Positions 16,141-46,934 of a stretch of DNA of 51,437 bases are shown piece by piece. The translations under genes were made by a program, and so were the position numbers. The notes beneath the pieces were generated by a model. The model ran no database searches, was not told the origin of the DNA, and saw only the letters and a program-made list of their open reading frames with translations. The DNA lies in NCBI GenBank assembly GCA_001630475.1, contig KV419468.1:1-51437 (forward strand). The letters run 5' to 3'. The first letter of the stretch is position 1. Each line of letters opens with the position of its first letter. Origin of the DNA: Sistotremastrum niveocremeum HHB9708. Lineage: Eukaryota; Basidiomycota; Agaricomycetes; Sistotremastrales; Sistotremastraceae.

Positions 16141-19100
16141 ATGATGGCTGATCCAGCTACCCAGTCCACGCTGAAAGAGCCATCTTGGTCTGCGATAAGC
16201 GACCTAGGCCAGAAATTCGATGTCATGATTGAATTGATGAAGTCCCACATCAGCATTGTCACGGAGCAGAGCAAGACGCAGGCAGAGCAAAGTCAGATCT
16301 TGAAAGATCACAGCAAGATGCTTGAAGCGCTGGAAAAGGACGCCACGAGAGGTATAGTCGCACCTTCTCATATGATACCAATGTATGTCCTGACCAGCCA
16401 ATAGATGATAAGCCCTTCGATGGAAGGGGGTTGAGAGACGAGTTGACGTGGGGTGCTTTGGATAAAGAAGCTTTGGCAAAGATCAAAGTCACTGTGGATG
16501 GATGGCGAGATTTGATGAACGTTTCGCTGATCTTCGTAAGTCATCGTGTACATTCCATCCGAATTTCAGCTCAAAGTACTCACGATTACCATCAGATCGC
16601 TCTCTTCTTGACAGTCGTCACGGCCTTCATCTCTCCCGTTATCCAGGCCTTCTCGACTCCTCCCAATGACTCCTCTTCAACATCCTCATCCTTAACAAGG
16701 CTACCACTTCCTCCAACTTCGCTCCAGCTTGTGGCTCTCTTCTACTACATGGCACTGATGGTCAGCGTAAGTGGCGTTCACCCGGCTTCCCTCTCAATCA
16801 AGATGCTGATCCGTCCATCAAAGATATTCAATTCAGTACTCTGCGTTCTCGGGATGCAGTGGGCCGGTAAGTTGCTCGCCACGCCAATCGGCAAAAGCAA
16901 CCTGGAGCGTACACTTCTTCGCGAACGACGAAAGGTGCTCGCCGAGCGCCGTCTTCTCCCGCTCATGGGTGTGTTATTCTGGACACTCCTCGCGTCCATC
17001 GCCTTCTTCGTCGCTGGATTCTTAATCCAATTTTGGGCCTTGTCCTTCTCATTCGATGGTCGAGCTCCGATCTTGATCGCTGGTGCTATCTCTGCTACGG
17101 CGATGGCGATCACCATTCTTGGCATCATCCTTGCTACGACGTATCATGCGACGGTGTATGAGAACTCGCCATTCGAAAGCCCCCTCAGCTCTGCTACGCG
17201 GGCAGCTTGGACGTACGTGAGGCATTCCCCTAGAATCAACCTATTCGATACGAGGTACTTGACTCGTTGGCTGCATCGCCAGCCGTCTACTTCGGGGGAA
17301 GTAGGACCCACTTCAGAAGCATCAGCGAAAGAATCTGCAGTGGTGCACCAGACTACACCCGAGACGATGGAAGAGCCCATCGAGCTTCTCCTGATTGAGA
17401 ACCAAAATGACACGGAGAATGTACAGGCGCTCAAGGCCTATGCACGTCTAGTCCTCAGTGCAAACAACGCGGAGGTGCTGGAAAGAGCAGTACCTTCATT
17501 TGCAATTGCGGAGTGGTATCAAGCTGGAACCGAGTTGTGGAATGTCTTTTTAGCCGTACGGGAGCGGTTCCTGGCGACGGATACGTCATTTCAAGTAAAG
17601 CAAACTGTGGACAAGCAGTTGGCATACTTTGTGGATTGGCAGCGATCGCGACGCGATATCATGAACCCAAGCGCGAGTCCAAGTCTCGAGAAGAACTCGA
17701 TTACCGACTGGTGCCGAGATCGGTGCTCTGATCTGGTTAATCGATCAGATGATTCTGAGCGCGAATTTTTCCCTTCTTTGGTTTTCTTCACTTCACTTGA
17801 ACCGAACAATAGCAATTTATGGTGGGAGTGGGACAGTTCATACGAAGAATGCGTTGCTCGAGTTCTCTCTTCCTTTGACCAAGAGGGAAAACCGGGACGC
17901 CGAGGACATGTCTTCGAATTAGCTATCAGGCACTGCACCAGTCTTCTCTTCCACGGAAGATCAGAGGATGTGACTCGTATTCTTTCTCACTGCAACAAAT
18001 CTTCACTTCTCCGTTCTTTGCTTCGGAATCCACACGTGCATTACCCTAAAATCAGCAAGATCTTTGAATTGATCACGCGCGGAAACGAACTAGCTATCCT
18101 GCAAGAGCTCGCTAACTTCTTCTCCGATCCCCAAATCATGGACATGAACCTCATACCCCACTCAGGATTCCCAAATCTAGTGGTTCTTGACTTCCTTGAT
18201 GCTCTCATTCCTTCCCTCCCCTCAAATTTCATTATTCCTCGATCCTTTGATCTTTCCCAAACACTGGCCCTTTTCATGCGCTTCAAAAAAAGGCTTGTGG
18301 TCTTGAATTCACGTCAGTGCAGAACACTTCTATACTACCTTGATCATGGTGGCTTTGAGGCGATCCGATCCCTCCGTTCCATGCATGATTTTTTGCAGCT
18401 CTGCCTCGTCCCAAGTGAGTGGGACCCGGATACTAATAATGCGGAGCGAGCTCGCTTTTACCTCTGTGAATATCACGAGGCTTTTACAGGTTTGTACTTC
18501 TGTTATGACATTGTCTCGTATGATACAACTTTTCTCTAGCACTCCCAGAAAGCTCTCAGTCACATTTTGATGATCTTTTCAATGCGCTTGCAACCCACAG
18601 AAATGACGAGACCTCGACAGTTTCCGAAGACAACTTTGTCGATGCTGTCAGAGAGTGCAATTCTCTCATCAAGGAGCACAAGCGAAGCGAGATACAGGAT
18701 ATCCTTTCCCGCGTGGACCACCTAAATCTTCTCGAATCATTCATTCAAAGTCCACATCTCCGCATTCACCACATATCCTCCCTCGTTTCTCGCATCATTG
18801 AAGGGAAAGAACTCATATATGTCCGTGATCTGGGCCCCATCATCGCCCATCTACCATCGCTGATGATTTGCGATCAATACATTCCAGTCATTGAATTCCT
18901 TGCTCATATTCTCAAGCTTCTGCCTTCCGAGTTTACTGCTCCTCGTGAACTAGATCTGTCCCGTTTAATCCCACTTTTCACTCAAAGTGAGCCAAATGAG
19001 GAAACTTGGCGCAAATACTCGGATACTCTGATGCAGTATTTGCATTGTGGTGCTTTTGATAGTCTGTCCGACCTGAACTCCGTTCGGCGTTTCCTGGACC

Positions 19101-19474
19101 TTTGCACAGAGACTGGCGGTCCGTTCAATTGGTGGAATTCTGCAGACAAAACGAGTGATTCTACTCGCGAACGAGCCACTGCGCTAAAGAACAAACTTCC
19201 TCCCATTGATTCTCGTGCGTAGACTTTCTTGCCAATTTATATCTCTCACTCACGATCCATTTGATGTTCAGCCAGTCCTGCCATCCTCCCTGATGCCGCC
19301 GCCGCAGTCGGATCAGATGATGCAAAAGCACTTTGTGTCCTTAGAGAAGAAAATCCTGAGTCAGCCACTCAAACACGTGCATTTTTCCAGCGGCTCAGAA
19401 ATATCTGGGACTGGACTCGGCGTACGGGGATTACGGGCGCATCTGAAGATGTGGAAAAGGCTATGAAGAAATAG
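16141..19474 (+). CDS. DUF6535-type four-helix membrane protein, array copy 1, 1018 aa
   Basis: Six exons: 16141-16351, 16405-16535, 16596-16766, 16824-18489, 18540-19214, 19272-19474; 3057 nt in frame. The N-terminus (about 1-70) is predicted coiled coil (IELMKSHISIVTEQSKTQAE ... LEALEKDATR). The DUF6535-like core follows: WGALDKEALAKIK, helix 1 VSLIFIALFLTVVTAFISPV, helix 2 LQLVALFYYMALMVSIFNSV with QWAG, a basic linker LERTLLRERRKVLAERR, helix 3 LFWTLLASIAFFVAGFLIQF, helix 4 AGAISATAMAITILGIILAT, then ENSPFESPLS. The remaining 700 residues are soluble and helical, with no known domain. This is the most divergent of the six copies; its N-terminal exon resembles copy 3. The ATG is doubled (MMADP); either could start. 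Family role unknown; it probably sits in an internal or plasma membrane. Confidence 0.8.
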
Positions 19475-21661: not shown

Positions 21662-24600
21662 ATGGAGAGTATACCACGCTATGCTCGTAGCGAAGGCTTT
21701 TCCGAGACAGACTCATCCAGCGAGTCTGCATCCAGCGAGGTTGCTTCCGATGAGGCTTCGCTCGCTGATGCTCCTGGATCCATACATACACTCGCCGATT
21801 TAGCGCCAATCTTCAGCAGCATGCTTTCTCTGATGAAAGACCAGAACAAGATGATGGCTGAGCAGGGAACGACGCAGAAGGAACAGAGTCAGCTCTTGAA
21901 GGATCATAGCAAGATGTTGGAAGCTTTGGAGAAAGATGCGACCAGAGGTATCATATATTTATTTATTGTGGTCAAGAGAGTTGACTCATAGGGTTGTAGA
22001 TGACAAAGCGTATGAAGAAAGGGGTTTGAAAGACGAATCGACCTGGGGCGCCTTAGATAAAGAAGCTTTGGCAAGAATCAAAGTACTGGTTGATGGCTGG
22101 AAAGACCTGATGAATGTTTCTTTAATCTTTGTAAGTCACCGTGTTCACTTGGATAAATCTGGAACTGATACGATACATGTTGATCAGATTGCGCTGTTCT
22201 TGACGGTCGTCACAGCCTTCATATCGCCTATCATCCAACTCTTCTCAACACCTTCGTCAACCAACTCAAAGCCAGCGCTCCCTCCAACATCATTGCAGCT
22301 GGTCGCCCTATTTTATTATTTAGCGCTCATGTTCAGTGTATGTGCGATTGACAATCATTTGATGGATTTTACTGATCCTGTGTAGATCTGCAACTCGGTG
22401 ATGTGTGTACTAGGACTACAGTGGGCAGGACGGCTGCTCTCATCCCCTCTTGGAAGAACGAATCTAGAGCGCGCCCTGAATCGCGAGCGGCGCAAAGTTC
22501 TCGCTGAACAGCGTCTCCTTCCCCTAATGGGAGTTCTGTTTTGGACCCTCTTGCTCTCCATTGCCTTCTTCGTCATCGGGTTCCTCATTCAATTCTGGGC
22601 GCTCTCGTTCTCGTTTGATGAACGCACGCCTATCCTCATCATCGGTGCCATCGCTGCGACGGCCCTCGCTATCACGATCCTTGGTGTCATTCTCGCCACC
22701 ACTTACCATGCTACCGTGCACAAGAACTCGCCATTCGAAAGCCCCCTGAGCTCTGCTTCGGTCGCGACTTGGGCGTGGCTGAAGCGAGTCATGAAGAAGC
22801 CTGAAAACGAGAGCAAAAAAGAGAAAGGGGGATCACGGCGATGGTATCAGCACGAAGTCACGATCCGATATCTCGACATGCTCCGACATCGTGTTCAACG
22901 CTTCTCCCGGTTGATCGCCAGCGAGCTATCTCTCTCGCTAGGACCACTGTCTCACCAGTCATCGAGAAATGTAGGAGAGCTTCTGGACGATCTTCAGAGT
23001 GAGATGAGAAAGGAGACACCGATTGAGCTTTTGATGACGGAAGATGAAGATGACAGTGAGACCGTTCAAGCGCTAAAAGCTTTCGCGCGTCTCGTCATAG
23101 GCACAAACGACGCTGAGGTACTGGAGAGAGCGGTACCCTCATTCGATTTGGGAGAATGGTGCAAGAGCGGGGGAGACCTTTTACCCGTATTCGTGGCGGT
23201 ACGAGAGCGATTCTTGGCAACAGACACTTCGTTTCGAGTGAAGGAGACCATTTACAAGCAGTTGGCCTATTGCAGACAGTGGCGCGGATGGACAGACTAC
23301 CGAGCCTGGAGAAGAGATCTTGAAGGAAATGCGATCACTCGTTGGTGCAGAAACCAATGCTTGGATCTGGTTTATCAATCACATAAATCTCACCGACGAT
23401 TCTTCTCTGCGTTTGTTTTCTTGGTATCACTCGAAGAAGGCAACAAAGATCTGCGGGGTGATCCAGACGATGAAAGCTACGAGAGAATTATTGCCCGAGT
23501 TCTCTCTTCATTCGATCGAGACGGGGAATTGGGAGACCGATACGATGTCTTCCGTTCAGCTGTCAACGAGTGCAATTCTCTCCTCCGCGATGGCAGATCG
23601 GATGACGTCATCCGCATTCTTTCGGGCAGTGATCAGGCGTCTATTCTGCGCTCTTTGCTCCGCAATCCGAGCCTGAATTGGTATGAGATCGAAGACATCA
23701 TTGGCTTAATCGTAAGAGGAAAAGAGACTACCGTATTAGGAAAATTAGCGAGGTTCTGCTACAATATCCCTGACATCAAACCCGTGAGAGGAGAACTACT
23801 ATTGATCGATTTCCTTGGCTCTCTCATTCGGTCTCTGCCTTCAACGTTCACTCTCTCCCAATCTTTCGGTCTCGCCCCTACCCTTGTCCTTCTCCTCCGA
23901 TATCACGCACGCATTAACTCCTCAGTACTGTCGCGTTACAGTGACACACTCGTTTACTTCCTCGATCACGGCGGCTTTGAGGCACTCCCCTGCCTTCGTC
24001 CCGCTGACGACTTCTTTCAACTCTGTCTCACACTGTCTCCCGACGACACCGTGCAGAGCACGAACTATCAAGAACGTGCCAGATTCTATCTAGAGCGACA
24101 TGGGGCTCTCGTCGGTACGTCCCTAGCCTGAGCGTCCATTTCTTTGTGACACCTTCTACCAGCTCTTCCGCCACCCTCTCCTGAAGAGCTTCAGCGTCTC
24201 ATCGATGCACTTCAGTCATACCAACATAACTGGGCCTCACAAGATCTGGAAGAGAGTTTCGCTGACGCTATTATAGAATGTGACTCGCTTTGCCAGGAAG
24301 GCACGCGAGCCCAACTCAAGACCCTTCTCTCGCACGTTGATCGTGTTCCTCTTCTGAGTCTTGTCCTTCAAAATCCACGCTTCTCTGGACAGCACATCTC
24401 GGCTCTTGTGCCTTTGATCGTAGAAGGGAACGAGCCAGAGCATATACGTGCTGCTCCTGATCTAATCACCGACGTCTCGCTGATGGCACGATCTAACGGA
24501 CACCTACCTATTCTTGCATTCCTTACAACGCTCATTCCGTTCCTCCCCCCAGACTATGTCGTTCCTACGGGATTTGATCTCTCTCAGACCCTCAAGCTCT

Positions 24601-25111
24601 TCATGGACAATTACCCTAATCAGCACTCATGGCGCAAACACTCTGATACTTTGATGCACTACCTTCATCGTGGTGCTCTGGATGCCCTTTCTGATCAAAA
24701 CTCGGTCCGAGAATTCCTCGACACGTGTATTCGTGCTTTTCGGTGGATGGACGACTGGAATGAGGATCAACAAACGAGTACACTTACCCGCGAACGAGCT
24801 GTTAAACTCAAGCGGAAACTCGAAGAGCTTGATTACGGTACGTCTTTGTGAATTTAAACGCCCTCCTTGGCTCCTCACCGTCAAGTGTAGCACGCTGTCG
24901 AGCGCGGCAATCTCTCATCGCAAGTCGTGTGCTCGATGAGCCCCCAGATCCTCCGACCACTGAAGAAGCGGTTTATCCATGGTCATCCGCTCTTCCAACA
25001 GATAATACACTCAGAACACGGCTAACAGATTTCTGGAGATGGAAGTGGAGAGGTCTGACAGCAGCTGCAGTTAGCGATGTGGAGAAGGCTCTGCGTCAAA
25101 GCGTGACCTAG
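21662..25111 (+). CDS. DUF6535-type four-helix membrane protein, array copy 2, 1063 aa
   Basis: Six exons: 21662-21947, 22000-22130, 22188-22337, 22386-24114, 24163-24837, 24891-25111; 3192 nt in frame. Exon 1 adds a Ser/Glu/Ala-rich start (SDSSSESASSEVASDEASLA type composition) before the coiled coil LSLMKDQNKMMAEQGTTQKE ... MLEALEKDATR. Core: WGALDKEAL (about 111), helix 1 LIFIALFLTVVTAFISPIIQ (about 137-160), helix 2 LVALFYYLALMFSICNSVMC (about 175-200), basic linker LERALNRERRKVLAEQR, helix 3 LFWTLLLSIAFFVIGFLIQF (about 240-262), helix 4 GAIAATALAITILGVILATT, then HKNSPFESPLS. The tail has conserved islands ARLVIGTNDAEVLERAVPSF and RERFLATDTSFRVKE. Exon 5 begins ALPPPSPEELQRLI. The first part of exon 4 is almost base-identical to copy 5. 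The exon 6 end WRWKWRG ... SDVEKALRQ is shared with copy 3. Function unknown. Confidence 0.85.
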
Positions 25112-25978: not shown

Positions 25979-28900
25979 ATGGCGGATCCTGAACAGCAGA
26001 TCACTGTGACGGCAAAAGATGGATCTTCAACATCGATAGGCGATCTCGGCATGAAATTTGATGTGATGATCGATTTGATGAAGTCTCACATGGCCATCGC
26101 CACCGAACAAAGCCAGATCTTGAGGGATCATAGCACGATGTTAGAGGCCCTCGAGAAAGATGCTACGAGAGGTATGATACCCTCGTTGTGTGAGAGTATA
26201 TTCGCTGACGACTTGATAGACGATAAAGCCTACGAAGCGAGGGGTTTAACTGATGAATCGACCTGGGGTGCGCTGGATAAGGAAGCGTTGGCAAAGATCA
26301 AAGTTTTAGTTGATGGTTGGAAAGACCTAATGAATGTGTCGTTAATCTTCGTAAGCCATCGTGTTTCCTCGAATAAACCTGGAGCTGAAAGATGCATGTT
26401 GATAAGATCGCACTCTTCCTAACGGTTGTGACCGCATTCATCTCTCCCATCATTCAGCTATTCTCAACACCTTCATCGACGAAGTCAAAACCACCCCTCC
26501 CACCCACATCATTGCAACTTGTAGCGCTATTTTATTATCTAGCGCTCATGTTTAGTGTAAGTGAGGCCTAGGCATGCTGATCAACAATTGACTCTTCTAT
26601 AGATCTGCAACTCAGTGATGTGTGTCCTGGGGTTACAGTGGGCAGGAAGACTGCTCTCAACTCCTCTTGGCAACACAAATCTAGAGCGCGCTCTAAACCG
26701 CGAGCGTCGTAAAGCCCTGGCTGAACAGCGCCTCCTTCCTCTGATGAGCGTCCTCTTTTGGACCCTTCTGCTCTCCATCGGCTTCTTCGTCGTTGGCTTC
26801 TTGATCCAATTCTGGGCAATCTCATTTTCCTTCGATGAACACGCGCCTATTCTCGTCATCGGCGCTGTTTCTACTACCGCGCTCGCGATCACTATCCTCG
26901 GCGTCATTCTTGCCACCACTTACCATGCCATGGTACACAAAAACTCTCCATTTGAGAGCCCCCTGAGCACTGCTTCGGTCGCGACTTTGGCGTGGTTGAA
27001 GCGAGTGACAGGGAAGAGCGAGAAGAAGACCACAAAGAAGCGCGATGAAAGACGACGATGGTATCAGCAAGGATTCATGATCAAACAAGCCAACTCGTTC
27101 CGACATCGCGTCCAAGGCTTCCCCCGGTGGGTCGCTGCCAAGTTAAACCTCTCACCAGGATCGCCGTCTCACAAGTTGTCGGGAGAGAAAGAAAGACATG
27201 AAGACAATCCTGAGCCTGAGACGGAAGAGGAGAAGCCAATCGAGGTCTTAATGAAAGAAAGAGCGGACGATAATGAGAATGTGCAAGCTCTCAAAGCGTA
27301 CGCGCGTCTAGTCATCAACACAAATGACGCCGAAGTACTAGAGAGAGCAGTGCCGTCGTTTGAGATTGCAGAGTGGTGCACAAGCGGAGGAACGCTGCTA
27401 CCCGTCTTCTTGGCAGTGCGAGAGCGGTTTATGGCAACAGACACTTCGTTCCGGGTGAAGGAGACGGTGACACAGCATTTGGTCTATTGTATAGAGTGGA
27501 GTGAATCGAGATATAGATCATGGTGGAGAACAGATCTTGAAGACAATGCGATTACTCGTTGGTGCAGAGATCAATGCAAGAATCTGGTTCGACAATCACA
27601 CGAATCTCATCGACAATTCTTCTCTTCTTGGGTTTTCTTCACTTCTTTCGATCCACATACCGAAGATCTGCGGGGATATCCGTGGGAACAGTCATACGAG
27701 GAAAGTGTCGCACGAGTTCTCGCTTCATTCGACCAAAATGGGAAATTGGGAGACCGAGAATATGTCTTCTCTTCAGCTGTCGAAGAGTGCGGATCTCTCC
27801 TCCGCGATGGCAGATCGGATGACGTCACACATCTCCTGCCTTGGGCTTATCGACCTTCTATTCTCCAATCTCTGCTCCGGAATCCGCACATGCGGTGGGG
27901 ATACATCGAAGGTATTGTTGCATTGATCACAAGAGGAAATGAAGTTGCTGTATTGAGAGAAATGGCGGGGTTTTTCTCCAATCTCCCCGATGTTAAGCCC
28001 ATCGATGCTGAACTGCTTGTGATCGAGTTCCTCGGTTCTCTCATTCCATCCCTGCCCTCGACGTTCACTCTCCCCCGGTCCTTCGATCTTGCTCCCACCC
28101 TTAGTCTTCTCCTCCGCTATCAGTCAAACATTTATCAAGGTTCACTGCCAGGTTACTGTGACACACTCATGTACTTCCTTGATCACGGTGGCTTTGAAGT
28201 ACTCTCGTCCCTTCGTCCCGCTCACGACTTCTTCCAACTCTGCCTCGCGCTACGTATGTATGAAGATCACCCGAACACGTTTAGACGAGTCCGTGCCAGA
28301 TTCTATTTGGAGCAACATGGCGCTCTCACTAGTACGTACTCCTCCTCAGCGTCTATTTCACTTGTGACACCTTTTCTTAGCTCGTCCGTTGCCGTCTCCT
28401 CGAGAGCTTCAGAATCTCGTCCAGCTTCTCCAGTCAAACCAGAACAACGAACCCTCAAGATACCTGGAGAACAATTTCGTTGATGTAGTCAAGGACTGTG
28501 TCGCGCTTTGTCGAGTAGGCGAAGAAGTCAAGATCAATAACCTCCTCTCAGACGTTGATCGCGTTTCTCTTTTGGGTCTTATTCTTCAAAACCTACACTT
28601 TTCAGGACGGGACATTTCGGCCCTTATCTCCTTGATCATTGACAGGAACGAGGCAGAACACATACGTGCGGCTCCTGATTTAATCACCAAGATCTGGCTG
28701 ACCAACATCTGGCCGATGGCACGATTTGACGGAGACCTCCCTGTCCTCGCATTCCTTACATCTCTCATTCCATCCCTCCCCTTTGGTTACATTGTTCCTC
28801 AAGAATTTGATTTAAGTCAGACTCTCTCACTTTTCATATACTATGAATTGGATCCGCAAACTTGGCGCAAGTACTCGGATACTCTGATCCATTACCTCGA

Positions 28901-31558: not shown

Positions 31559-34500
31559 ATGGCCGATTCTCAACCACAGGCGTATCCTGACCAGGCTCCC
31601 ACAATTATGAATACGCTTGGAGACTTAGCGCCGGTGTTCACTCGAATGCTTTCGCTGATGGAAGACCAGAATAAAATGATGGCGGACCAGGGAAAGACGC
31701 AGACGGAGCAGAGTCAGCTCTTGAAGGATCATAGCAAGATGTTGGAAGCCCTGGAGAAGGATGCGACTCGAGGTATGACAGCCGTTTTCTATTGGACGAT
31801 GATCGCTGACGATAAGTCCGTAGACGACAAAGCGTATGAGGGACGAGGGTTGACAGATGAATCGACTTGGGGTGCTCTAGATAAAGAAGCTCTTGCAAAG
31901 ATGAAAGTGCTAGTCGATGGCTGGAAAGATCTCATGAATGTATCGCTTATTTTCGTAAGTCATCATACTGCGCGATATAAATTTGTAATTAATATGTGCA
32001 TCTCATTCCATTTAGATTGCTCTCTTCCTGACAGTTGTAACGGCCTTCATATCTCCTATCATCCAACTGTTCTCAACTCCTTCGTCGACGAAGTCAAAGC
32101 CATCCCTCCCTCCGACCTCGTTACAACTCGTCGCGCTATTTTATTATTTAGCGCTCATGTTCAGTGTAAGTAATATATTCAGGGACGCTCAATCAATGAC
32201 TCAACTATGCTCTGCAGATATGCAACTCAGTAATGTGTGTGCTGGGGCTACAGTGGGCAGGACGCCTGCTCTCAACTCCGCTTGGAAAAACAAATTTGGA
32301 GCGCGCATTAAACCGCGAGCGCCGTAAAGTCCTGGCTGAACAGCGTCTCCTCCCTCTCATGGGTGTCTTATTCTGGACTCTACTCCTCTCTATCGGCTTC
32401 TTTGTCATTGGATTCCTCATCCAATTCTGGGCGCTCTCGTTCTCCTTTGATGAACGCGCGCCTATTCTCGTCATTGGCGCTGTTGCTGCTACCGCGCTCG
32501 CTGTCACCATTCTCGGTGTCATTCTCGCGACTACATATCATGCCACCGTGCACAAGAACTCACCATTCGAAAGCCCTCTGAGCTCTGCTTCGATTGCAAT
32601 TTGGGCTTGGATGAAGCGAGCGACGCAGAAACGTGAGACCGAGAACAAGGACGGGAAGGGGGAAGGGCGATGGTATCCGCACCAATTCACGATCCGATAT
32701 CTCAACGTGCTCCGACATCGCGTCCAACGCTTCTCCCGATGGATCCTTGCCAGGCTATCTCTCTTGGGAGGTTCAGCGTCTCGGCCGTCAGGAGAGAAAG
32801 AAAGGTCTCAAGACGATCCTGAGTCTGAGACGGAAGAGGAGAAGCCACTCAAGGTCTTGATGAAAGAAAATGCCGACGACAATGAGACCGTGCAAGCGCT
32901 AAAGGCTTACGCGCGTCTAGTCATCAATACGAATGACGCCGAGGTCTTGGAGAGAGCTGTCCCTTCATTCGCATTCGGCGAATGGTGCCAGAGCGGAGCA
33001 GATCTTCTACCAGTCTTCTTGGTCGTGCGACAGCGGTTCTTGGCGACAGATACATCTTTTCGGGTGAAGGAGACAGTGAAGCAGCAGTTGCTCTATTGTA
33101 GAGAGTGGAGCGGATGGAGAAAAAATCCGTGGAATTGGAGAGATAATTTTGAAGGAAATGCGATCACTCGATCATGCAGAGATCAATGCAGGGATCTGGT
33201 TGATCGATCCCACGAATCTCGTCAACAATTCTTCTCTGCGTGGGTTTTCTTCACTTCTCTCGATCCGGGCAACGAAGATCTGCAGGGAGATCCATGGCGT
33301 GACTTGTACGAGGAAAGTGTCTCACAAGTTCTGTCTTCATTCAACCACAACGGGGAATTGGGAGACCGAGAATATCTCTTCGGTTCAGCTGTCATCGAGT
33401 GCAGAGATCTCCTCCGCGTTGGCAGATCGGATGACGTCACCCGCATTCTTTCTAGCGGTTATCAATCTTCTATTCTCCGCTCTCTGCTTCGGAATCCATA
33501 TATGGTATGGGATGAGATCAAAGGCATTGTTGCGTTGATCACAAGAGGAAACGAAGTAGCTGTATTAGGAGATTTGACCGAATTCTTCTCCAATCTCCCT
33601 CACATCAAACCTGTGGGATTCTCCGGAGATTTGCTTGTGATCGAATTCCTCGGTTCTCTCATTTCGTCTCTGCCGTTGACGTTCACTCTGCCGCGATCCT
33701 TCGATCTTGCCCCTACCCTTGCTCTTCTCCTCCGCTATCAGTCAAACATTTACTCCTCGGCACTGTCGCATTACAGTAGAATACTCATCTACTTCCTCGA
33801 TTGTGCTGGCTTCGGCTTCCAGTTGCTCTCGTCCCTTCGTCCCGCCCACGACTTCTTCCAACTCTGCATAGTGCGATCGTCCAATGGGCAGCTCGACAAG
33901 ACTGTCTCAGATCGTGCACAATTCTATCTTTCCGAACATCACGGGGCCTTCACTCGTAAGTTTTCGCTCTTTGCCTTGGATTCATCTCTGACTCTTTCGG
34001 ATAGCTCTCCCGGGTCCGTCTGATCAAGATATCGAGGATCTCGTTGATGCACTCGTTGCGTACGAGAAGAACATGTCGTCGAAAGAGTTAGAAGAGGATT
34101 TCGTTGATGCAGCTATGGAGTGCGACTGTCTGTTACGCGAGCAGAAGAAGGACGAGGTTACAGATATTCTGCTGCGCGTGGGCCACCTCCCCATCCTTGA
34201 CGCTTTCATCCGCAATCCCCGCCTCCACCTCAAACACATATCGTCTCTTGTCCCCTATACTATAAAAGGAAGAGAACATACTTATCTCCGTGATCTGAGT
34301 CCTGCCATCACCGATCCGTCATTGTTAGACCTCCCTGACGCCTACAAACTCATCATCGGGTTTCTCGCATTCCTTCTCCAACATCTTCCCTCCAACTTCA
34401 CCGCTCCTCCGCAATTTGATCTATCTCTACTCTTGGCAATCTTCATGCGCCATGACCCTGATCATCGTACCTGGCGCAAATTCTCCGAGACTTTGATGCA

Positions 34501-34957
34501 CTATCTGGATCATGGCGCACTGGAGGCGCTTTTGGACAAGAACTCTGCTCGACCTTTCCTCAATCTCTGCGTCGAACCTTCACTTGACATGCGGCAATAT
34601 TGGAATCAGGACCAACGAACTAGTAAATCTACCTCCAATCGAGCCGCCGAACTGATGAAGAAACTCGATGAACTTGATGCAGGTACGCAAATCTTTGAAG
34701 TCGTATTCCTTCCTAACAAATATAACTCGCGACGTGTAGCTCAACGTTCTCCTGAGAGCACTCGTCTCAATGATAGTGCTAATCCGCCAGAGCCTATCGA
34801 CACCGAAACAGCGGTGCCTCGAAAATCACTCATCCCTCGAGTTTGGCACGCATTCCCCTCAGCGCTGGCCAGTTCTTTGAGTTGGGCAAGAGTGGACAAG
34901 CGGGCTGATAGTGATCAAGATGTCGAGCTTGCTCTGCGATCTCAGGACCGTGCATAG
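31559..34957 (+). CDS. DUF6535-type four-helix membrane protein, array copy 4, 1042 aa
   Basis: Six exons: 31559-31772, 31824-31954, 32016-32165, 32218-33955, 34005-34682, 34740-34957; 3129 nt in frame. The N-terminus has the copy 2/5 type coiled coil (LSLMEDQNKMMADQGKTQTE ... LEALEKDATR). Core: WGALDKEALAKMK, four helices as in the other copies (helix 3 LFWTLLLSIGFFVIGFLIQF, helix 4 GAVAATALAVTILGVILATT), then HKNSPFESPLS. Tail islands ARLVINTNDAEVLERAVPSF and RQRFLATDTSFRVKE. Exon 5 begins PLPGPSDQDIEDLVDALVAY and is close to copy 5 over its whole length (HLKHISSLVPYTIKGREHTY). The last exon, with RVWHAFPSALAS, also resembles copy 5. So the front resembles copies 2/5/6 and the back resembles copy 5. 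Function unknown. Confidence 0.85.

Positions 34958-35957: not shown

Positions 35958-35982
<25 letters not shown>
34958..35982. other. 3' flank of array gene 4
   Basis: No gene I can defend. It contains GTCACAGCGTGTTGTCAC (35194-35211), also behind genes 1 and 5, and AGCTGAGAATGTTCG (35708-35722), matched behind gene 5 at 43325-43339. The 3' flank was therefore duplicated along with the genes. Minus-strand frames at 35385-35672 and 35682-35867 are open but unrecognised. Confidence 0.45.

Positions 35983-35988
<6 letters not shown>
35961..35988. repeat. (GT)14 microsatellite at the LINE target site
   Basis: Fourteen GT units, directly followed by AAGACCGTG. It is part of the pre-insertion locus and overlaps one target duplication of the LINE. 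Confidence 0.95.
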
Positions 35989-35992
<4 letters not shown>

Positions 35993-35997
35993 CCGTG

Positions 35998-38409
35998 AGA
36001 GAGAGAGAGAGAGAATCTTTGTATTTAACGTGCGAGCAGGCTGCCCTTTAGGGCGCCAAGGTACACGAATACTATCCTACTGGCTTTCGGAGAGTATCGG
36101 AGTCGAAAGTAAACGGTGAAATAAAACGGTTAAAAAATCAGTCAAGTGCTTGGGATACTGCGTGATGTCTGAGAACTGGGAGGTGGTGTAATCATCGGTC
36201 GAAAAGTGATAAAATAAAAATAACATAAGAATCGGGCTTTGCTGATTGTTTTTTCGTTGGACTGGTCTCCTATACGAGCGTTGGCCAAACCTTCAATACT
36301 TCTTTCGCCTGCTTGGAATTTCTCTCGGGGGGCTGGTACGGCTCTGCTACAACTGGGTCGTCAAGCCAGGAGCACACTTAGTGGCCAGTTAAGCGGAGCG
36401 AATATCTCCCAGCCCCCTTCCAGAAAGTCTTCGCAGGTTCAAATTTCTTGTTGGTCGGCCTCGGCGTCGATTGAGGGTGGTCCGTCTGAGATGATTTTAA
36501 TGCTTCGTTATGCGCCGCGATTAATGAGAAGAGAAAGGGAGTATTAAGAAATGCAAATTGGGTGATTGGTTTTGGAGTGGGGAGGGGTTTCGATCTCGTA
36601 GGGTTCTACTATGTCTCCTGGGGTTCGGGTTCGAGTCGTTCGGTCTTCTCAAAGGCTCCTGATTCCTTGATGAATTCCGAGAGGGCTATGATACCTTCGT
36701 TCGTGCCGAAGATTGTCTTATCTGTCATGTCTATGAGTGAATCGGTTAGTTTTCGACGTGCTGCTGTGTGCAGATCACAATCTCGTATGATATGATTACG
36801 AGTCTGGTATTCCTCTCCGCATGGGCATCCAACATCTTCGGGAACGCGCATGTGGCTGTAATATTCGCCGAAGAAACCATGGCCTGTCCTGCACTGCGTG
36901 ACTCTGCCGTATAGTTTCCGAGGGAGCTGTTTGAAGTGATTGCGGGGTTTTCGTGATGGAGGGAAACAGTTGGCAGGGCCGAATAGACCCTTAGGAGGGG
37001 TCTTCCTCCATTCGTTCGTCCACTCTTCTATGGGTTTGGCCCTTCGTGTTCGTCGAGCATGAGCTAGGGTGGTGAGAGATGAGGGGGTGAGAGATTTTGC
37101 GGCCTGCTTTGCTAACGCGTCGGCCCTTTCGTTTCCTCGTATGTCCTGATGACCTGGGCACCAAGCGAGTTCGAATTCGTTCAGTGGGTTTTCATCTAAC
37201 CATCCAAAAATCCTATTCCTGAATCGGATGGATTTCGTTTGTCCTCCGATTGGAAGACCTTGATGTATGATCTGGAGTGCAGAAATATTGTCAGCGTATA
37301 AATGGATATACTGAATCTCTGGGTGTGATCCAGCATATCGCAGGGCTTGTTCGGAGGCTCTCGCCAGTCCTGATAGCTCTGCGTCGAAAACTTCAGAGTG
37401 CGTGCCAGTGTTCAATTTGATCGAGAAGATCTCTTCGTCTCGATGGTATCCTACTACTCCCGCTCCTGTTGTGTTCGTTCCCTCGGGAAGCGATAACAGA
37501 GAGCCGTCGGAGTATATGTGAAGGTGTTTGGGGTCGGAGGCTGTCGTCCTGTATCTCAGCATGTGTTCCCGTGCTGCTTTGTCTTTCGTATCTGTTGCAA
37601 AATCAGTCAATTGAACTCTGTATCTGACGTCGGCGTCATCAAAAGTTCTCCGCCATGGCGGATGGTCAACAAATGACACCTGTTCCATGTTAACTGGAAC
37701 ATTGGTCATGAGTTCGTGCAGTCTGGTTGCGGGTCTTCGTCGTTTTAATGGTGCCACTGCAGTTTTCCTTGCCAGTCGCGGCTTAACTGGTGGGCCAAGG
37801 AATGCCATATCTGCGCATCCTTGATGTCTCCTCCGTTCGTCTGTCAAGCGTAGAGTTATCGGATGTGATTTGGGAAGAGTGGTAATGCGAATGGCAGCTC
37901 CATGGCTGAGTTCGTCCAAGTGGTGTTTGATGGGGAGGATGGACGCCTCGAGTTCGAGTGCGTAGATGGGTGTGGTTCGGAAGCCGGCACATATGAAGCG
38001 AAGAGCCAAGTTCTGCACTGTGGTCAGAGTTCTCATGATCCCGACTTGGCCCTTCCACCACACTGGGCTTGCATAGGTCATGATGGGTCGTACACATGCT
38101 CCATATAGATTGCGTAGGTGCGATTGCGAGAGGCCTCGGACCGTATTGCCGAGCATCTTCATTGCGTTGAGACACGTTTTTGCCCTGTCTGCTAGAGATT
38201 TGACATGTTCTAAAAATGTCAGTTTTCGATCAAATAGAACTCCCAACCACTTGACAGTTGTCTGCGGTTGGAGTTCGGCTACGGTTCCATCTGAGGATCG
38301 GAGAGTTATTGAAGGTGAGATGCTTTTGTCTCGGGTTCGGCGCGTGAGATGTAGGAACTCTCGTTTCACTTTGTCGATTACGAGACCATTCTCGGAGGCC
38401 CATTTCTCA
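35998..38409 (-). mobile_element. 5'-truncated non-LTR retrotransposon (LINE)
   Basis: On the minus strand the element starts at 38409 in the middle of the reverse transcriptase gene and ends at 35998 in a (TC)n-like tail (GA repeats on the plus strand at 35998-36014). It is flanked by an exact 15-bp direct repeat: CACGGTCTTACACAC on the minus strand, at 38410-38424 and 35983-35997. A long variable target duplication, 5' truncation and a simple-repeat tail are hallmarks of target-primed reverse transcription. Removing it joins the GT microsatellite to CCACCCTTCAATGC at 38425. The 3'UTR is about 610 bp. Confidence 0.88.
36609..38409 (-). CDS. LINE ORF2, C-terminal part: RT remnant and RNase H
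   Basis: About 600 residues, intact to a stop at 36609-36611. It begins within the RT domain after the catalytic motif (EKWASENGLVIDKVKREFLH, then VKWLGVLFDRKLTFLEHV). The RT thumb region is followed by a type I RNase H with all key residues: D in IYSDGSLL, E in FDAELSGLA, D in LYADNISAL, and D in GNERADALAKQA preceded by CPGH. A C-terminal zinc-binding segment CRTGHGFFGEYY ... CPCGEEYQTRNHIIRDCDLH closes the protein. This order fits I/Tad-like fungal LINEs. The frame is open a little beyond 38409, but those codons are target-site sequence. It cannot retrotranspose by itself because the endonuclease and RT core are missing. Confidence 0.9.
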
Positions 38410-38424
38410 GTGTGTAAGACCGTG

Positions 38425-39481
38425 CCACCCTTCAATGCTTCTTAGATGATTATGTTGATCTTCCGAGATGAACCACAAGCAGGAGGCCTGGCATCTGACC
38501 GTATGGTTGAGTGCTTGTCTCCATAGCTATCAAGGGAGCTGGCCTTACATGGTTCTATCGCTCGAGTCCAGTTATGCCTGAAGGATATTGGCAAGGACTA
38601 TTGCCACATGCCGCATCTTCTGGTCATCCAAAGAATAAACATTACGAGAAGGAAAGACGAACGTGATATGGCTAAGACGACGTTCTGAATCAGAGCTCAA
38701 ATCACTGCAACATTGATGTGAGACCTCAATGAAAGAGCTTGACGACGAGCGCACGCATTGCCAATTCACTTCGATTAGCATCACGTAAGCGCCGGTGCCC
38801 TCTTTTCGTTTTGACGACGACGATGACCACACCGCCACCCACGACCTCGATGAGCATAAATCTCTCCTGTATCATATTCGAAAGCCCGTGTTTCCGTCTC
38901 ATTTCTGGTCTTAGGGGAGTAAGGCATGATTGAAATGTGCGTCGATGGTCTGATCAGTTCATACCACCTGGCTTCATGTCTTTCTACGACAGCACTGTCC
39001 TCAATTCCTATGTTCAAGTCTTGCACCATTTTCATGTGGATCGCACCGATCATTCGATTGGCCCACGATGTATAGAGCCCCGTCCGCTCATGTCAGAACT
39101 CTGGCACGCTGAAGCCGTCGTGAACGACTGGCAATCGACGATCGACCATGTCCTAGAAACGTCCGATCTCATGATCGTCTATCCCTTTCCCTTGCGTGAT
39201 GGTGAAACTCACGACATTCTCGACTTTAGAATGTGGAAAAGGTGCGCACATAATGATCGTATAATGAACCTGTAAAGAATTGCCTTGGCTGATCATTATG
39301 ACAGACGTGCAAATCCTACGCTATGGCATGCTTGATGCATTGCCTCAGATTTGGTGCAGCTTCCAGCATATCTTTCCCCTCCCCCCCTCTGCCTCTTACC
39401 CTCTTACCATCACCACCACCACCCTACTTCTTCCCCATCCCTCCCTTAGCTCGAACCCCTATCCTACTTCGCTATGTTAAA
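38425..39481. other. 5' flank of array gene 5
   Basis: Holds the upstream block AAGCGCCGGTGCCC at 38787 and the 5'UTR intron 39242-39304. A frame at 38937-39241 is open right up to the intron donor and has protein-like composition (MRRWSDQFIPPGFMSFYDST ... DILDFRMWKR). It could be an upstream exon or small gene, but equivalent frames in other copies are broken. Confidence 0.45.
39242..39304 (+). promoter_or_regulatory. Conserved 5'UTR intron, gene 5
   Basis: Donor GTGCGCAC, CTTGGCTGATC, acceptor TGACAG before ACGTGC; 63 nt. The inverted CCAAT seen in the others is lost here (CTTGG). It ends 177 nt before the chosen ATG. Confidence 0.5.
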
Positions 39482-42400
39482 ATGCGAAGTCGAAGGACTT
39501 CATTGAAGGAGGCTCCTATCACAGCTCCGAAGGAAGAACTCGCTCCGCTGTTCAGCCAGATGCTCGATTTAATGCGAGAGCAAAACAAAATGATGGCAGA
39601 ACAGGGAAAGACACAAACGGAGCAAAGTCAGATCTTGCGGGATCACAGTAAGATGCTGGAAATTCTTGAGAAAGATGCAACTAGAGGTATTGTATAGCTG
39701 CCTCGTTTCGTTGGAGAACAGCTGCTGATAAGGTCGTAGACGATAAAGCGTATGAAGCACGGGGTTTAAGAGACGAATCTACGTGGGGTGCGCTGGACAA
39801 AGAAGCGTTGGCAAAAATGAAAGTTATGGTTGATGGATGGAAAGATCTTATGAACGTGTCTCTGATTTTCGTGAGTCATCATATATATAAGTCCGATTTT
39901 GGGCTAACGCGAGTTATATTGTCAATAGATCGCTCTCTTCTTGACGGTAGTCACGGCATTCATCTCTCCTATCATCCAACTATTTTCGACTCCTTCGTCC
40001 TCGTCAACCTCTAAGCCAGCGCCTCCTCCCACGTCATTGCAGCTCGTGGCTCTATTCTATTACCTAGCGCTCATGTTTAGTGTAAGTGAGATTCCAAAGT
40101 AGTTTTTCAAGGACTTACTCACATGTTTCCAGATCTGCAATTCCGTGATGTGTGTCCTTGGGCTACAGTGGGCCGGACGACTGCTCTCCATGCCCCCAGG
40201 AAAGACGAACCTAGAGCGCGCTCTGAATCGCGAGCGGCGCAAAGTACTCGCTGAACAGCGTCTCCTTCCCCTAATGGGAGTTCTGTTTTGGACCCTCCTG
40301 CTCTCCATTGCCTTCTTCGTCATCGGATTCCTCATCCAATTCTGGGCGCTGTCGTTCTCTTTTGATGAACGTGCGCCTATACTCATCATCGGCGCCGTCG
40401 CTGCAACAGCGCTCGCTATCACTATCCTCGGTGTGATCCTCGCGACAACCTATCATGCGGCTATACACGAGAATTCCCCATTCGTGAGCCCGCTTAGTTC
40501 TGCGTCGATGGCAACTTGGTTGTGGATAAAGCGAGTCACCAAGAAGAGCAAGATGGAGAGACAGACAGAGACAGATGAGGCACCACAATTGAACAAACGC
40601 TTTGCCATACCCGCCCATCTTCCCTCGCGCTTCCGCCGCATTCAGCGCTCTGTCAAGAGAATTTTCAGGGAGCCGGATCTTGCTCCGGAAGCACCGTTCC
40701 ATGAGTTGTTGGGAGGACGAGAGGGCGCTCGGATTGAGAGCGAGGAGAAGGAGGGAGAGCCGATCGAGGTGTTGATGAAAGAAGCAGCAGACGACACTGC
40801 GACTGTGCAAGCTTTCAAAGCGTACGCGCGTCTAGTCATCAACACGAACGACGCTGAGGTTCTGGAGAGAGCTGTACCATCGTTTGTGATCGGCGAATGG
40901 TGCAAGAGCGGGGGAGATCTGCTACCGCTCTTCTTGGCAGTACGTGATCGGTTCTTGGCCACAGACACCTCGTTCAGGGTGAAGGAGACAGTTCAGAAGC
41001 AGTTGGTCGATTGCAGAGAGTGGAGTGGATGGACAGACGAGGATGGGTGGTGGAGAAGAGATCTTGAAGGAAACGACATCACTCGCTGGTGCAGAGATCA
41101 ATTCAAAGATCTGGTCAATCAATCACATGAATCTCATCGACAATTCTTCTCTGCGTGGGTCTTCTTCACCTCACTTGACCCGAACAACGACGATCTGCGG
41201 GGAGATCCACGGGATGACTCACACGAGGAAAGTTTGGTCCGAGTTCTCTATTCATTCGACCAAGAAGGGGAATTGGGAGACCGAAGAGATGTCTTCTGGT
41301 CAGCTGTCTGGGAGTGCAGATCGGATGACGTCACCCGCATTCTTTCTCGCGGTTATCAATATTCTGTTCTGCGCTCTTTGCTCCGGAATCCTTACAGACC
41401 GTGGGATGACGTTGGCGGGCTCCTTGGCAGGCCCCTTGGCCGGATCAAGGACGTTGTTGCATTCATCACAAGAGGAAACGAAGTTGCTGTATTGGGAGAA
41501 TTGGCCAAATTCTTCTCCAATCTGCCTGACATCAAGCCCGTGGGAGATTACTGTAAAAATCTGCTTGTGATCGATTTCCTTAGCTCCCTTACTCTGTCTC
41601 TGCCCTCGACATTCACTGCCCCCCAATCCTTCGATCTTGCCCCCACCCTCAGTCTTCTCCTCCGCTATCAGTTCGTCATCGGGTATTCACTGCCGCGTTA
41701 CAGTGCAACACTGATTTACTTCCTCGATCACGGCGGCTTCGAGCTGCTCTCCTCCCTTCGTCCGGCTCACGACTTCTTCCAACTCTGCATCACGCGATCG
41801 TCCAATGACCAGATTGACGAGACTGTCTCAGATCGTGCCCAATTCTATCTTTCCAAACATCACGAGGCATTCACTCGTAAGTTATCTCTCTTTGCCTTGG
41901 ATTCATTTCTGACTCTTTCGGATAGCTCTCCCTGGTCCGTCCGATCAAGAACTTGAGGATCTCGTTGATGCACTCGTCGCGTACAAGAAAAACCCATCAG
42001 CGCAAGATTTAGAAGATCATTTCGTAGATGCAGCTATGGGGTGCGACTGTCTTATACGTGAACAGAACAGGAACGAGGTTCAAGATATTCTCTCGCGTGT
42101 GGGCCACCTCCCCATCCTTGAGGCTTTCGTCCGCGATCCCCGCCTCCACCTCAAACACATATCGTCTCTTGTCCCTCTCACTATAAAAGGAAGAGAACAT
42201 ACTTATCTCCGTGATCTGAGTCCTGCCATCACCAATCCGTCATTGTTGGACCATTCTGACGCCTATCAACGCATCATTGAGTTTCTCGCCCTCGTTCTCC
42301 AACATCTTCCCTCCGACTTCACTGTCCCTCAAGAATTTGATCTGTCTCAGGTACTCAGCCTCTTCATGCGCCACAACCCTGACTATCGCACCTGGCGCAA

Positions 42401-42875
42401 ATTCTCTGATGCATTGATGCAATATCTAGATCATGGAGCCTTAGAAGCACTAGTACTTTCTGACAAGAACTCTGTTCGACCTTTCCTTGATCTCTGCGTC
42501 ATGCCTTCTTTGGAAATGGAGTTTTATTGGGATCAAAATCAACAAACTAGCGAATCCACCTCCAAGCGGGCCGCCGAACTGTTGAAGAAACTGGATGAGC
42601 TTGATGCAAGTACGCAAATTTTGTCATGAAGTCGTGTTTCCTACTGACAAATACCACGACTTATAGCTCGCCGTGCTTCTGAGGCTACTCGCATCACTGG
42701 CGGTGCAAACCCGCCAGAGTCTATTAACGAAACCACAGAGCCTCAACAAACAGTCATGCCTCGACTATGGCACGCATTCATCTCAGCGCTAGGGGGTTTA
42801 GGACTGAAAGGAAATGAACGGAAGGCACGAGGTGGAGATGTCGAACTAGCTCTGCAATCTCCGAGCGGATCCTAG
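39482..42875 (+). CDS. DUF6535-type four-helix membrane protein, array copy 5, 1041 aa
   Basis: Six exons: 39482-39686, 39740-39870, 39929-40081, 40133-41876, 41926-42609, 42667-42875; 3126 nt in frame. The start MRSRRTSLKEAP matches copy 6; an upstream in-frame ATG at 39323 would add a Pro/Leu-rich stretch not found in the others and is not preferred. Coiled coil LDLMREQNKMMAEQGKTQTE, WGALDKEALAKMK, helix 1, helix 2 (ALFYYLALMFSICNSVMC), linker LERALNRERRKVLAEQR, helix 3 LFWTLLLSIAFFVIGFLIQF, helix 4 GAVAATALAITILGVILATT. Exon 4 lacks the CNSLLRDGR-type segment seen in copies 2-4 (here VWECRSDDVTRIL) and has an added GLLGRPLGRIKD loop. Exon 5 is close to copy 4. The front of exon 4 is nearly identical to copy 2 at the base level. 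Function unknown. Confidence 0.85.
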
Positions 42876-44677: not shown

Positions 44678-44734
44678 AGCATGCTACAATCGACTTCTAC
44701 CATCTTGTCTTCGTGAACTTCTACCATGGATACG

Positions 44735-44784
44735 GTGCGCATATTATAACCTACAAATATTCTCATTGGCTGATTTCCATATAG
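44735..44784 (+). promoter_or_regulatory. Conserved 5'UTR intron, copy 6
   Basis: GTGCGCAT donor, TCATTGGCTGATT, acceptor ATATAG before ACGCTC; 50 nt, ending 132 nt before the ATG. It is kept although the gene body is truncated. Confidence 0.6.
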
Positions 44785-44916
44785 ACGCTCGAAGCTATGC
44801 TCAGGGACGCTCAACACGTTGCCCCAGTGTATCAACCCTACCTTCTCTGTCGCCGTCTTGCATCTCCTGTCGCCCTCACATTCCCCTCTCCTTCATCTAT
44901 CCCAGCGTCTCTCAAT

Positions 44917-46712
44917 ATGCGAAGCCGAAAGACTTCCACGAATTCCTCGAAAGAGAGTCCTGTGACGACTACGAAAGGGGATCTAGCGCCAAGATTTGAT
45001 CGCCTGATTAGTCTGATAGAGGAGCAGAACAAGATAATGGGAGAGCAGGGGAAGACGTTGAAGGAGCATAGCACGATGTTGGAGGCATTGGAGAAAGATG
45101 CAACTAGAGGTATTGAATTAGTATGTCTGTTTGTTGGAGAATATTTGCTGATAAGGTTGTAGATGATAAAGCTTATGAAGGCAGGAGTTTGAAAGATGAA
45201 TTGACCTGGGGTGCTCTGGATAAGGAAGCATTGGCCAAGATGAAGGTCGCAGTCGATGGATGGAAAGACCTTATGAATGTGTTGTTGATCTTCGTAAGGC
45301 ATCATGTTCGGTGACACAAACATTGAGCTAACATGTGTATTTCATCACATTCAGATCGCTCTCTTCCTGACGGTCGTGACCGCTTTTATTTCTCCAATCA
45401 TCCAACTCTTTTCGACACCGTCTTCGACAAATCCTTCGTCGTCATCGTCATCCAAGCCGCCGCTTCCTCCCACATCATTACAGCTGGTCGCCTTGTTTTA
45501 CTGTTTGGCACTGATGTTTAGCGTAAGTGAAGTCCGGGAACACCTGCCTAAGGACTTACTAATTCTCTATAGATCTGCAACTCGGTGATGTGCGTTCTTG
45601 GGCTACAGTGGTCAGGAAGATTGCTCTCTGTACCTCAAGGAAAAACCAATCTAGAACGCACGCTGAACCGGGAGCGAAGGAAATTGCTCGCAGAGAAGCG
45701 TCTCCTCCCCTTGATGAGCGTTCTTTTCTGGACCCTCCTCCTGTCCATTGCATTCTTTGTCGTTGACTTCCTTATCCAACTCTGGGCGTTATCGTTTTCC
45801 TTTGAAGAAAGAGCATCCATTCTTATCATCAGCGCCGTCGCTGCTACTGCTCTCGCTATCACTATCCTCGGCGTCATTCTTGCTACGACTTATCATGCAA
45901 CGATATACGAGAACTCGCCTTTTGAGAGTCTGTTAAGCTCTGCATCAATCACGGCTTGGGCCTGGATTAATCAAGTCCTGAAGAAAGTCAAGGCAGGGAG
46001 CAAGAAGCGGAAGGACAGCGGACAGCGATGGCATCTGCACCAACCTACGATTTCACCTCTCGACCGCTTCCAACGTCGTGTCCAATGGACCGTTGGAAAA
46101 CTATCTCGCCCGCCAGGACCATCACGTCACGAGTCCTCGAGAAAAGCAGTAGAGGTTATAGGCAAAATTGAGAGCGAACAAAGAGAGGAAGAGCCGCTGG
46201 AAGCGTTGATGACAGAAAAGGCAGAGGACAATGAGAACGTGAAAGCGCTCAAAGGCTACGCACGTCTGGTGATCAACACGAACGATACTGAAGTCTTGGA
46301 GAGAGCAGTAGCCTCGTTTGAGATCACAGAATGGTGGAAGAATGGCGCAGAGCTGCTCCCGGTCTTCCTGGCCGTGCGAGAGCGATTCTTGGCGACAGAC
46401 ACGTCGTTTCGGGTGAAGGAGACTGTGACTAAGCGGTTGAGCGATTGTAGGGAGTGGAGTGGGTGGAGAAGCAAACATGGATGGAGATCGGATATTGAAG
46501 GGAATGCGATCACTCGCTGGTGCAGAGACCACTGCAACGAGCTAGTCTATCGGTCTCGCGAATCTCACTGCCAATTCTTTGCCGCCTTTGTTTTCTTCAC
46601 TTCGCTCGATTCAAACAACAAAGATCTGCGAAAACTGCCGTGGGAGGGCTCTTACGAGAAAAGTGTCGTCCGAGTTCTCTCCTCGTTTGACCAGGACCAG
46701 CCATATGGTTAG
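44917..46712 (+). pseudogene. Truncated DUF6535-type gene, array copy 6
   Basis: Exons 44917-45109, 45163-45293, 45355-45522 and the beginning of exon 4 (45573 onward). The start is MRSRKTSTNSSKESP, followed by the coiled coil LISLIEEQNKIMGEQGKTLK, WGALDKEALAKMK, all four membrane helices (helix 3 LFWTLLLSIAFFVVDFLIQL, with a charged Asp inside it) and the islands ARLVINTNDTEVLERAVASF and RERFLATDTSFRVKE. After VLSSFDQDQ the sequence leaves the family. At 46710-46712 the reading ends at a TAG that belongs to the terminus of a hAT-like element. The remaining part of exon 4 and exons 5-6 are not found downstream. The product would be 543 residues with the membrane domain intact but half the tail missing, so it could still be a shortened functional protein. 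Confidence 0.8.
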
Positions 46713-46925: not shown

Positions 46926-46934
46926 GCCCGAGAA

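What the first reader, a model, noticed from the sequence alone, without database searches (positions are those of the whole stretch)
16141..46712. Six-copy head-to-tail array of DUF6535-type membrane proteins with a shared two-sided architecture
Five complete copies and one truncated copy, all on the plus strand, share six exons with identical intron phases, an N-terminal coiled coil, four helices and a 650-750-residue helical tail. Between-copy differences are spread over the tail while the core (WGALDKEAL, QWAG, RERRKVLAE, SPFESPLS) hardly changes. A locally expanding, divergent membrane family of unknown function is a candidate for self/non-self recognition, stress sensing or a structural membrane role. 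That role is inference.
Basis: partly seen in the sequence, partly recalled or inferred. Interest (0 to 1): 0.75.

Follow-up and report, generated by a model that had tools for sequence, protein, structure and literature searches.

The report
Mosaic fungal membrane-protein gene array
A fungal chromosome carries a long row of related membrane-protein genes of unknown function whose membrane part is nearly fixed while their tails differ and have been swapped between copies, a pattern also seen in recognition genes, though what these proteins do is not known.

Summary
In detail: five intact six-exon genes and one broken one, all plus strand, intron phases 1,0,0,1,1, all over the DUF6535 (PF20153) cut-off. 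The interpretation needs changing. (1) It is no private six-copy expansion: the genome holds at least about 160 DUF6535 loci, 115 of 160 clustered, and window genes are as close to genes on contig C19 as to each other. (2) Copy 6 is a gene split by a DNA transposon; its 3' part, with the same 8-9-base target duplication, lies on C91, so the array probably runs on through C91 and C19 as 13 head-to-tail genes, facing a 7-gene array. (3) Genes are mosaics: N-terminal, core and exon-5 classes occur in mixed combinations, and near-identical tracts (98% over 982 bp) sit in otherwise diverged genes. (4) The core is strongly constrained (median dN/dS 0.04); linker and tail are looser (0.22-0.62), not shown above 1. 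(5) The tail holds a duplicated unit of about 185 residues. The mode of diversification resembles Podospora hnwd recognition genes, but no NACHT or WD40 domain was found. Function, expression, structure and strain variation could not be tested; a recognition role is inference, barely ahead of a plain membrane role.

The parts
16141..19474 (+). c1: DUF6535 gene, exons 16141-16351, 16405-16535, 16596-16766, 16824-18489, 18540-19214, 19272-19474; most divergent copy
   Evidence: model; PF20153 73.1 bits; 51-56% identical to the ten other A-core genes compared there
21662..25111 (+). c2: DUF6535 gene, exons 21662-21947, 22000-22130, 22188-22337, 22386-24114, 24163-24837, 24891-25111
25979..29332 (+). 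c3: DUF6535 gene, exons 25979-26171, 26220-26350, 26407-26556, 26603-28331, 28381-29073, 29136-29332
26867..27270 (+). Probable gene-conversion tract in c3 (TM4 and linker), 94-99% identical in 100-base windows to L012 (C19:444 kb); next windows 89-90%, falling to 62-83% further out; bounds approximate
   Evidence: sliding identity; linker dS 0.04 for c3-L012
31559..34957 (+). c4: DUF6535 gene, exons 31559-31772, 31824-31954, 32016-32165, 32218-33955, 34005-34682, 34740-34957
39482..42875 (+). c5: DUF6535 gene, exons 39482-39686, 39740-39870, 39929-40081, 40133-41876, 41926-42609, 42667-42875
44917..46709 (+). c6: 5' part of a DUF6535 gene split in exon 4; exons 44917-45109, 45163-45293, 45355-45522, 45573-46709. 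The next three bases, which give the stop, are the end of the inserted element
46702..46710 (.). CATATGGTT, also at the start of the c6 3' part on C91 (21697-21705): target-site duplication of 8 bases (9 if the last T is counted)
   Evidence: the word occurs once in the window
46710..46730 (.). Terminal repeat of the inserted DNA transposon (TAGAGTTTGAAAGTCGAGTTG); 18 of 21 bases agree with the reverse complement of the end on C91. hAT-like by duplication length and ends (family features recalled; transposase not tested)
   Evidence: 0 of 20000 random pairs as good
33310..33870 (+). Tail unit 1 (end of exon 4), shown for c4; bounds approximate
   Evidence: profile comparison with unit 2: probability 99.9, E 1.3e-36
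34022..34582 (+). Tail unit 2 (exon 5), shown for c4; bounds approximate
36612..38441 (-). Retroelement open reading frame with RNase H, between c4 and c5
   Evidence: PF00075, E 1.8e-9

Best explanation
Shown: a large, clustered family of DUF6535 genes, each with a variable N-terminal stretch, a nearly fixed four-helix membrane core, a fast-evolving linker and a long tail that includes two related units of about 185 residues; parts have been exchanged between copies by recombination, and some copies are broken by stops or a transposon. Inferred from hydropathy and the positive-inside rule: N terminus and tail both face the cytosol. Inferred, most likely function: membrane-anchored intracellular recognition proteins, in which the tail binds variable partners (proteins of another individual after hyphal fusion, or of a parasite) and the fixed core, perhaps as an oligomer, acts on the membrane. 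Recombination among about 160 copies would supply new tail and core combinations.
For: Family size and clustering. Incompatible splits, each with ultrafast bootstrap 99-100: core A/B against exon-5 X/Y with all four combinations, and N-class I against X/Y with all four; by identity classes, N I, II, III occur with X and Y in 6 of 6 combinations. Tracts of 98.1% over 982 bp (L017-L033, on facing arrays) and 94-99% over about 400 bp (c3-L012) in otherwise diverged genes. Median dN/dS: core 0.04, N 0.15, tail-a 0.22, exon 5 0.29, unit 1 0.42, exon 6 0.60, linker 0.62. Synonymous difference drops from 0.57-0.83 in core windows to 0.31-0.37 at c4 residues 521-590. Loop 2-3 holds 6-8 K/R, loop 1-2 holds 1-2. 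The Podospora hnwd recognition family exchanges repeats within and between paralogs (abstracts of PMC2873952 and PMC1805685).
Against: No segment has a median dN/dS over 1 (largest single pair 1.32, linker). No Pfam family but DUF6535 passes its cut-off in the 20 pieces scanned of the six genes, so no effector or switch domain is in sight. The two tail units do not exchange within a gene (same gene 27.8%, different genes 27.6%), unlike hnwd repeats. Gene conversion is common in tandem arrays and does not itself imply recognition. Topology is not shown by experiment or structure. The tree-conflict test alone is weak: odd and even halves of one segment also conflict in 8 of 10 tests. N classes II and III rest on identity, not on supported branches.
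Confidence: 0.38

Rival explanations
1. Environment- or stage-specific membrane proteins (transport, signalling or stress), expanded for dosage and specialised expression. Tail mosaicism is a by-product of gene conversion in arrays, and the tail is simply under weak constraint.
For: Median dN/dS below 1 in every segment; conversion is expected between array copies; one DUF6535 transcript is listed among down-regulated genes in Flammulina at high CO2 (PMC12387923, one table passage).
Against: Does not readily explain why N, core and exon-5 classes recur in mixed combinations in intact genes, nor the scale, about 160 loci against 47 matches to the NLR-type family NPHP3_N in the same genome (other NLR-type families not searched).
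Confidence: 0.35
2. Structural membrane scaffold: oligomers tether a membrane such as the septal pore cap or the endoplasmic reticulum, with tails as spacers.
For: Nearly fixed core, long tail, weak heptad pattern at the N terminus.
Against: About 160 diverged copies with broken members are not typical of a structural part (general knowledge); the tail keeps conserved columns, so it is not a free spacer.
Confidence: 0.12
3. Decaying family: mostly drifting, little-used copies kept by duplication.
For: 4 of 20 genes in the two facing arrays look broken (c6, and L023, L029, L033 by my automatic models).
Against: 5 of 6 window copies are open over more than 1,000 codons and core dN/dS is 0.04.
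Confidence: 0.08

Closest known systems
DUF6535 family (Pfam PF20153, IPR045338)
   Same: Core domain over the curated cut-off in all six copies.
   Different: The profile covers 177 positions of the membrane core; the tail pieces scanned, with the duplicated unit, have no Pfam match over a cut-off, and the family has no assigned function.
Podospora hnwd (het-d, het-e, het-r) NLR recognition genes
   Same: Paralogs exchange segments of the C-terminal part; the family includes pseudogenes (abstracts and section titles of PMC1805685 and PMC2873952).
   Different: No NACHT domain and no WD40 repeats found here; four membrane helices; two long units not exchanged with each other; positive selection not shown, whereas it is reported for hnwd (abstract).
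LRRC8 and similar four-helix channels with a cytosolic repeat domain; plant ACD6-type proteins (both recalled, no call)
   Same: Four-helix membrane part with a long cytosolic tail that contains repeats (here by hydropathy and sequence only).

Membership tests
DUF6535 (PF20153) | Profile match over the curated cut-off of 23.9 bits | tested here: met
   6 of 6 copies, 30.0-73.1 bits, five of them from exon 4 alone
DUF6535 (PF20153) | Several membrane helices in the core | tested here: met
   four hydrophobic stretches in 6 of 6 by hydropathy; not by experiment
Fungal NLR (STAND; features as in passages of PMC10197012) | NACHT or NB-ARC nucleotide-binding domain | tested here: not met
   none at E up to 1 in 20 pieces (exons 2-3 of c2-c6 not scanned apart); none of 47 NPHP3_N matches lies on C75
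Fungal NLR (STAND; features as in passages of PMC10197012) | C-terminal WD40, TPR or ankyrin repeats | tested here: not met
   none in exon 4 of six copies or exon 5 of five
Recognition family with recombining specificity region (hnwd-like) | Exchange of segments between paralogs | tested here: met
   splits
Recognition family with recombining specificity region (hnwd-like) | Exchange of repeat units within one gene | tested here: not met
   unit 1 to unit 2 identity 27.8% in the same gene, 27.6% between genes (c1-c5)
Recognition family with recombining specificity region (hnwd-like) | Positive diversifying selection at exposed residues | tested here: inconclusive
   pairwise only, medians below 1; site-wise step not available
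Recognition family with recombining specificity region (hnwd-like) | High polymorphism between strains and a role in incompatibility | not testable with these tools
   one genome of this species held; no strain data
hAT DNA transposon (element splitting c6) | 8-base target duplication and inverted ends (features recalled) | tested here: met
hAT DNA transposon (element splitting c6) | hAT transposase | not tested
   the element is not in one piece in the sequence held

The most novel reading that the evidence does not exclude
DUF6535 proteins form a membrane-anchored recognition repertoire of mushroom-type fungi without a nucleotide switch, larger in this genome than the NPHP3_N (NLR-type) set, and supply some of the unidentified genes of somatic incompatibility in basidiomycetes.
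Probability: 0.13. Interest if true: 0.85.

Novelty: new variant of a known kind. Interest (0 to 1): 0.5.

Why it matters
The mechanisms of somatic incompatibility in basidiomycetes were called completely unknown in 2021 (PMC8229728, passages read). A large, mosaic, membrane-anchored family gives a concrete candidate to test by strain comparison and array removal. In the library searched, DUF6535, IPR045338 and PF20153 occur in a single paper, in an expression table (open-licence papers only).

Tried and rejected
Local six-copy expansion: rejected, identity within the window is no higher than between c1-c5 and seven A-core C19 genes in any of 7 segments. C75 as an allelic copy of another contig: no evidence; window 9300-16100 found no second copy, only one match of 138 bases at 72% (3 of 3 candidates scored; very common words are skipped), while one search had scored only 40 of 207 candidates, nearly all of a short repeat. 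A tRNA-derived SINE cutting c6, my first idea: dropped; 46705-47420 found no other copy and the ends fit a DNA transposon. Tree conflict by AU test as sole proof of mosaicism: rejected after a control; odd and even halves of the same segment conflict in 8 of 10 tests, lnL differences 15-60. With half data between segments, both directions exceed 60 for N and for core against unit 1 and against exon 5 (64-345); one direction does for N-core (110), N-tail-a (72), tail-a-exon 5 (346) and unit 1-exon 5 (136); core-tail-a and tail-a-unit 1 stay within the control range. A like test on 11 genes (9 of C39, one each of C10 and C28) conflicts in 5 of 6, without such a control. tail-a as a third tail unit: no profile match. 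Relatives in viral contigs: 15 stretches matched a pattern, none was confirmed. Solved structures: nothing significant. NPHP3_N matches near DUF6535 loci: 10 of 47 within 20 kb against a mean of 3.9 in random placement, 3 of 47 within 5 kb against 1.7; weak, and contig lengths were partly approximated. The HET-domain search rang nowhere, controls included, so it says nothing.
Full report
WHAT IS THERE. The window is contig C75 of a 34.7-Mb genome in 111 contigs, by its genes probably a basidiomycete fungus (inference: short introns, DUF6535; species not known). Six DUF6535 genes lie on the plus strand. I rebuilt them: five intact genes of 1018-1063 residues with six exons, GT-AG introns of 46-62 nt and phases 1,0,0,1,1, and a sixth that stops in exon 4. 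All six pass the PF20153 cut-off.

ANATOMY. Hydropathy gives four membrane stretches in the core (plus one weak stretch in the c3 tail and two in the c4 tail); the loop between the second and third holds 6-8 K/R, that between the first and second 1-2, so both ends should be cytosolic (inference by the positive-inside rule). The N-terminal stretch has a weak heptad pattern (3 of 6 copies). The end of exon 4 and exon 5 are related to each other (tblastn to E 5e-27; profile comparison 99.9% probability over 183 positions, E 1.3e-36): the tail contains a duplicated unit. The units do not exchange with each other within a gene. The part before them, tail-a, is unrelated to them by profile. In 20 pieces of the six genes no Pfam family other than DUF6535 reaches its cut-off.

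COPY 6. The 3' part of c6 lies on contig C91 (end of exon 4 from about 21705, then exon 5). Both breaks carry CATATGGTT, and the inner ends are inverted repeats (18 of 21; 0 of 20000 random pairs as good). The stop codon that ends the window ORF is formed by the first bases of the insert. C91 and C19 hold identical sequence at their ends in reversed order (4107 of 4107 bases of L026/L027; all 3365 bases of L018 within L017), which I read as a contig overlap. Thus C75, C91 and reversed C19 probably form one head-to-tail row of 13 genes (c1-c6 plus 7), facing a row of 7 at C19:434-468 kb. The C75-C91 link rests on the duplication, the inverted ends and the complementary gene parts, not on continuous sequence.

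GENOME. Merging the listed hits of two searches gives 163 loci on 38 contigs. Three are on C91, two being doubles of C19 and one the c6 3' part; without them there are 160 on 37 contigs, 115 of 160 in clusters and 74 of 82 neighbours on the same strand (with C91, 118 of 163 and 76 of 84). This is a lower bound, as 150 of 312 and 75 of 270 candidates were scored; some loci may be fragments. The genome holds 47 NPHP3_N matches; other NLR-type families were not searched.

MOSAICS. Of the 20 genes in the two facing rows, 15 entered the segment comparison (c1-c5, L011, L012, L013, L017, L019, L020, L021, L025, L026, L028); left out were c6, L023, L029, L033 (broken) and L014 (incomplete model). L017 has no exon 6 in my model, and L020 needed a GC donor set by hand. 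Classes, set by me from the identity tables: core A or B (between 64%, within 91% and 77%), exon 5 X or Y (between 40%, within 65% and 60%), N-terminal I, II, III (51% between, 81% within I) (c1 was not counted in the core and exon-5 means). Combinations seen: I-X, I-Y, II-X, II-Y, III-X, III-Y, and core B with both X and Y; c1 is neither X nor Y, and L021 and the three B genes have no N class. The splits A/B, X/Y and class I have ultrafast bootstrap 99-100, II and III do not; A/B against X/Y, and class I against X/Y, show all four combinations, which one tree cannot give without exchange or repeated change. Recent tracts: L017 and L033, 982 bp at 98.1% with sharp edges, windows outside mostly 45-80%; c3 and L012, about 400 bp at 94-99%. 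AU tests reject the other segments' trees in 20 of 20, but the control also rejects in 8 of 10, so I rely on the splits, the tracts and the larger likelihood gaps. An assembly artefact is unlikely for copies this diverged, but the 98% tract was not checked against reads.

SELECTION. Over 66 pairs of 12 A-core genes, median dN/dS is 0.04 in the core, 0.15 in N, 0.22 in tail-a, 0.29 in exon 5, 0.42 in unit 1 and 0.62 in the linker; for exon 6 it is 0.60 over 55 pairs. Pairs with saturated synonymous change (34 of 66 in N, 6 in the core, 1 in the linker, 6 in tail-a, 0 in unit 1, 8 in exon 5, 9 of 55 in exon 6) drop out of the dS and dN/dS medians. Synonymous difference per window is 0.57-0.83 in the core, 0.43-0.56 in the linker, as low as 0.31-0.37 at c4 residues 521-590 and 0.36 at 661-690 in unit 1, and 0.55-0.72 in exon 5. 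Lower values in linker and unit 1 are as expected if those parts are exchanged more often (inference). No segment shows an average above 1.

FUNCTION. I commit to a membrane-anchored intracellular recognition role with a tail varied by recombination (0.38), with weakly constrained environmental membrane proteins nearly as likely (0.35). Shown: copy number, mosaics, contrast in constraint, broken copies. Inferred: topology, binding by the tail, any effect on the membrane, any link to incompatibility.

KNOWN OR NEW. The domain is a known Pfam family without function. The way it diversifies is like hnwd genes (abstracts), while the protein is not an NLR by the tests made. In the held library only one paper mentions the family.

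Noticed in passing
window 3120-7610: Copia-type retroelement open reading frame of 1496 codons without a stop (RVT_2, rve and gag matches).
   Followed up: partly
window 9000-9195 and 7928-8123: Repeat of about 193 bases; 41 further copies listed at 94-99% identity, with 40 of 207 candidates scored, so a lower bound.
   Followed up: no
window 47425-50090: Stretch 97% identical to C36:82157-84826, with shorter matches of 85-90% on several other contigs: a multi-copy element near the contig end.
   Followed up: no
window 14714-15340, minus: Open frame that looks like a casein-kinase-like kinase fragment by eye (recalled); no Pfam match at E up to 0.001 for this piece.
   Followed up: partly
C19 and C91 contig ends: Identical sequence at both ends in reversed order (4107 and 3365 bases compared): an overlap that the assembly left unjoined.
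   Followed up: yes
L020 (C19:449.7 kb), exon 4 donor: GC-AG intron where the window copies have GT-AG; the reading frame stays open.
   Followed up: no
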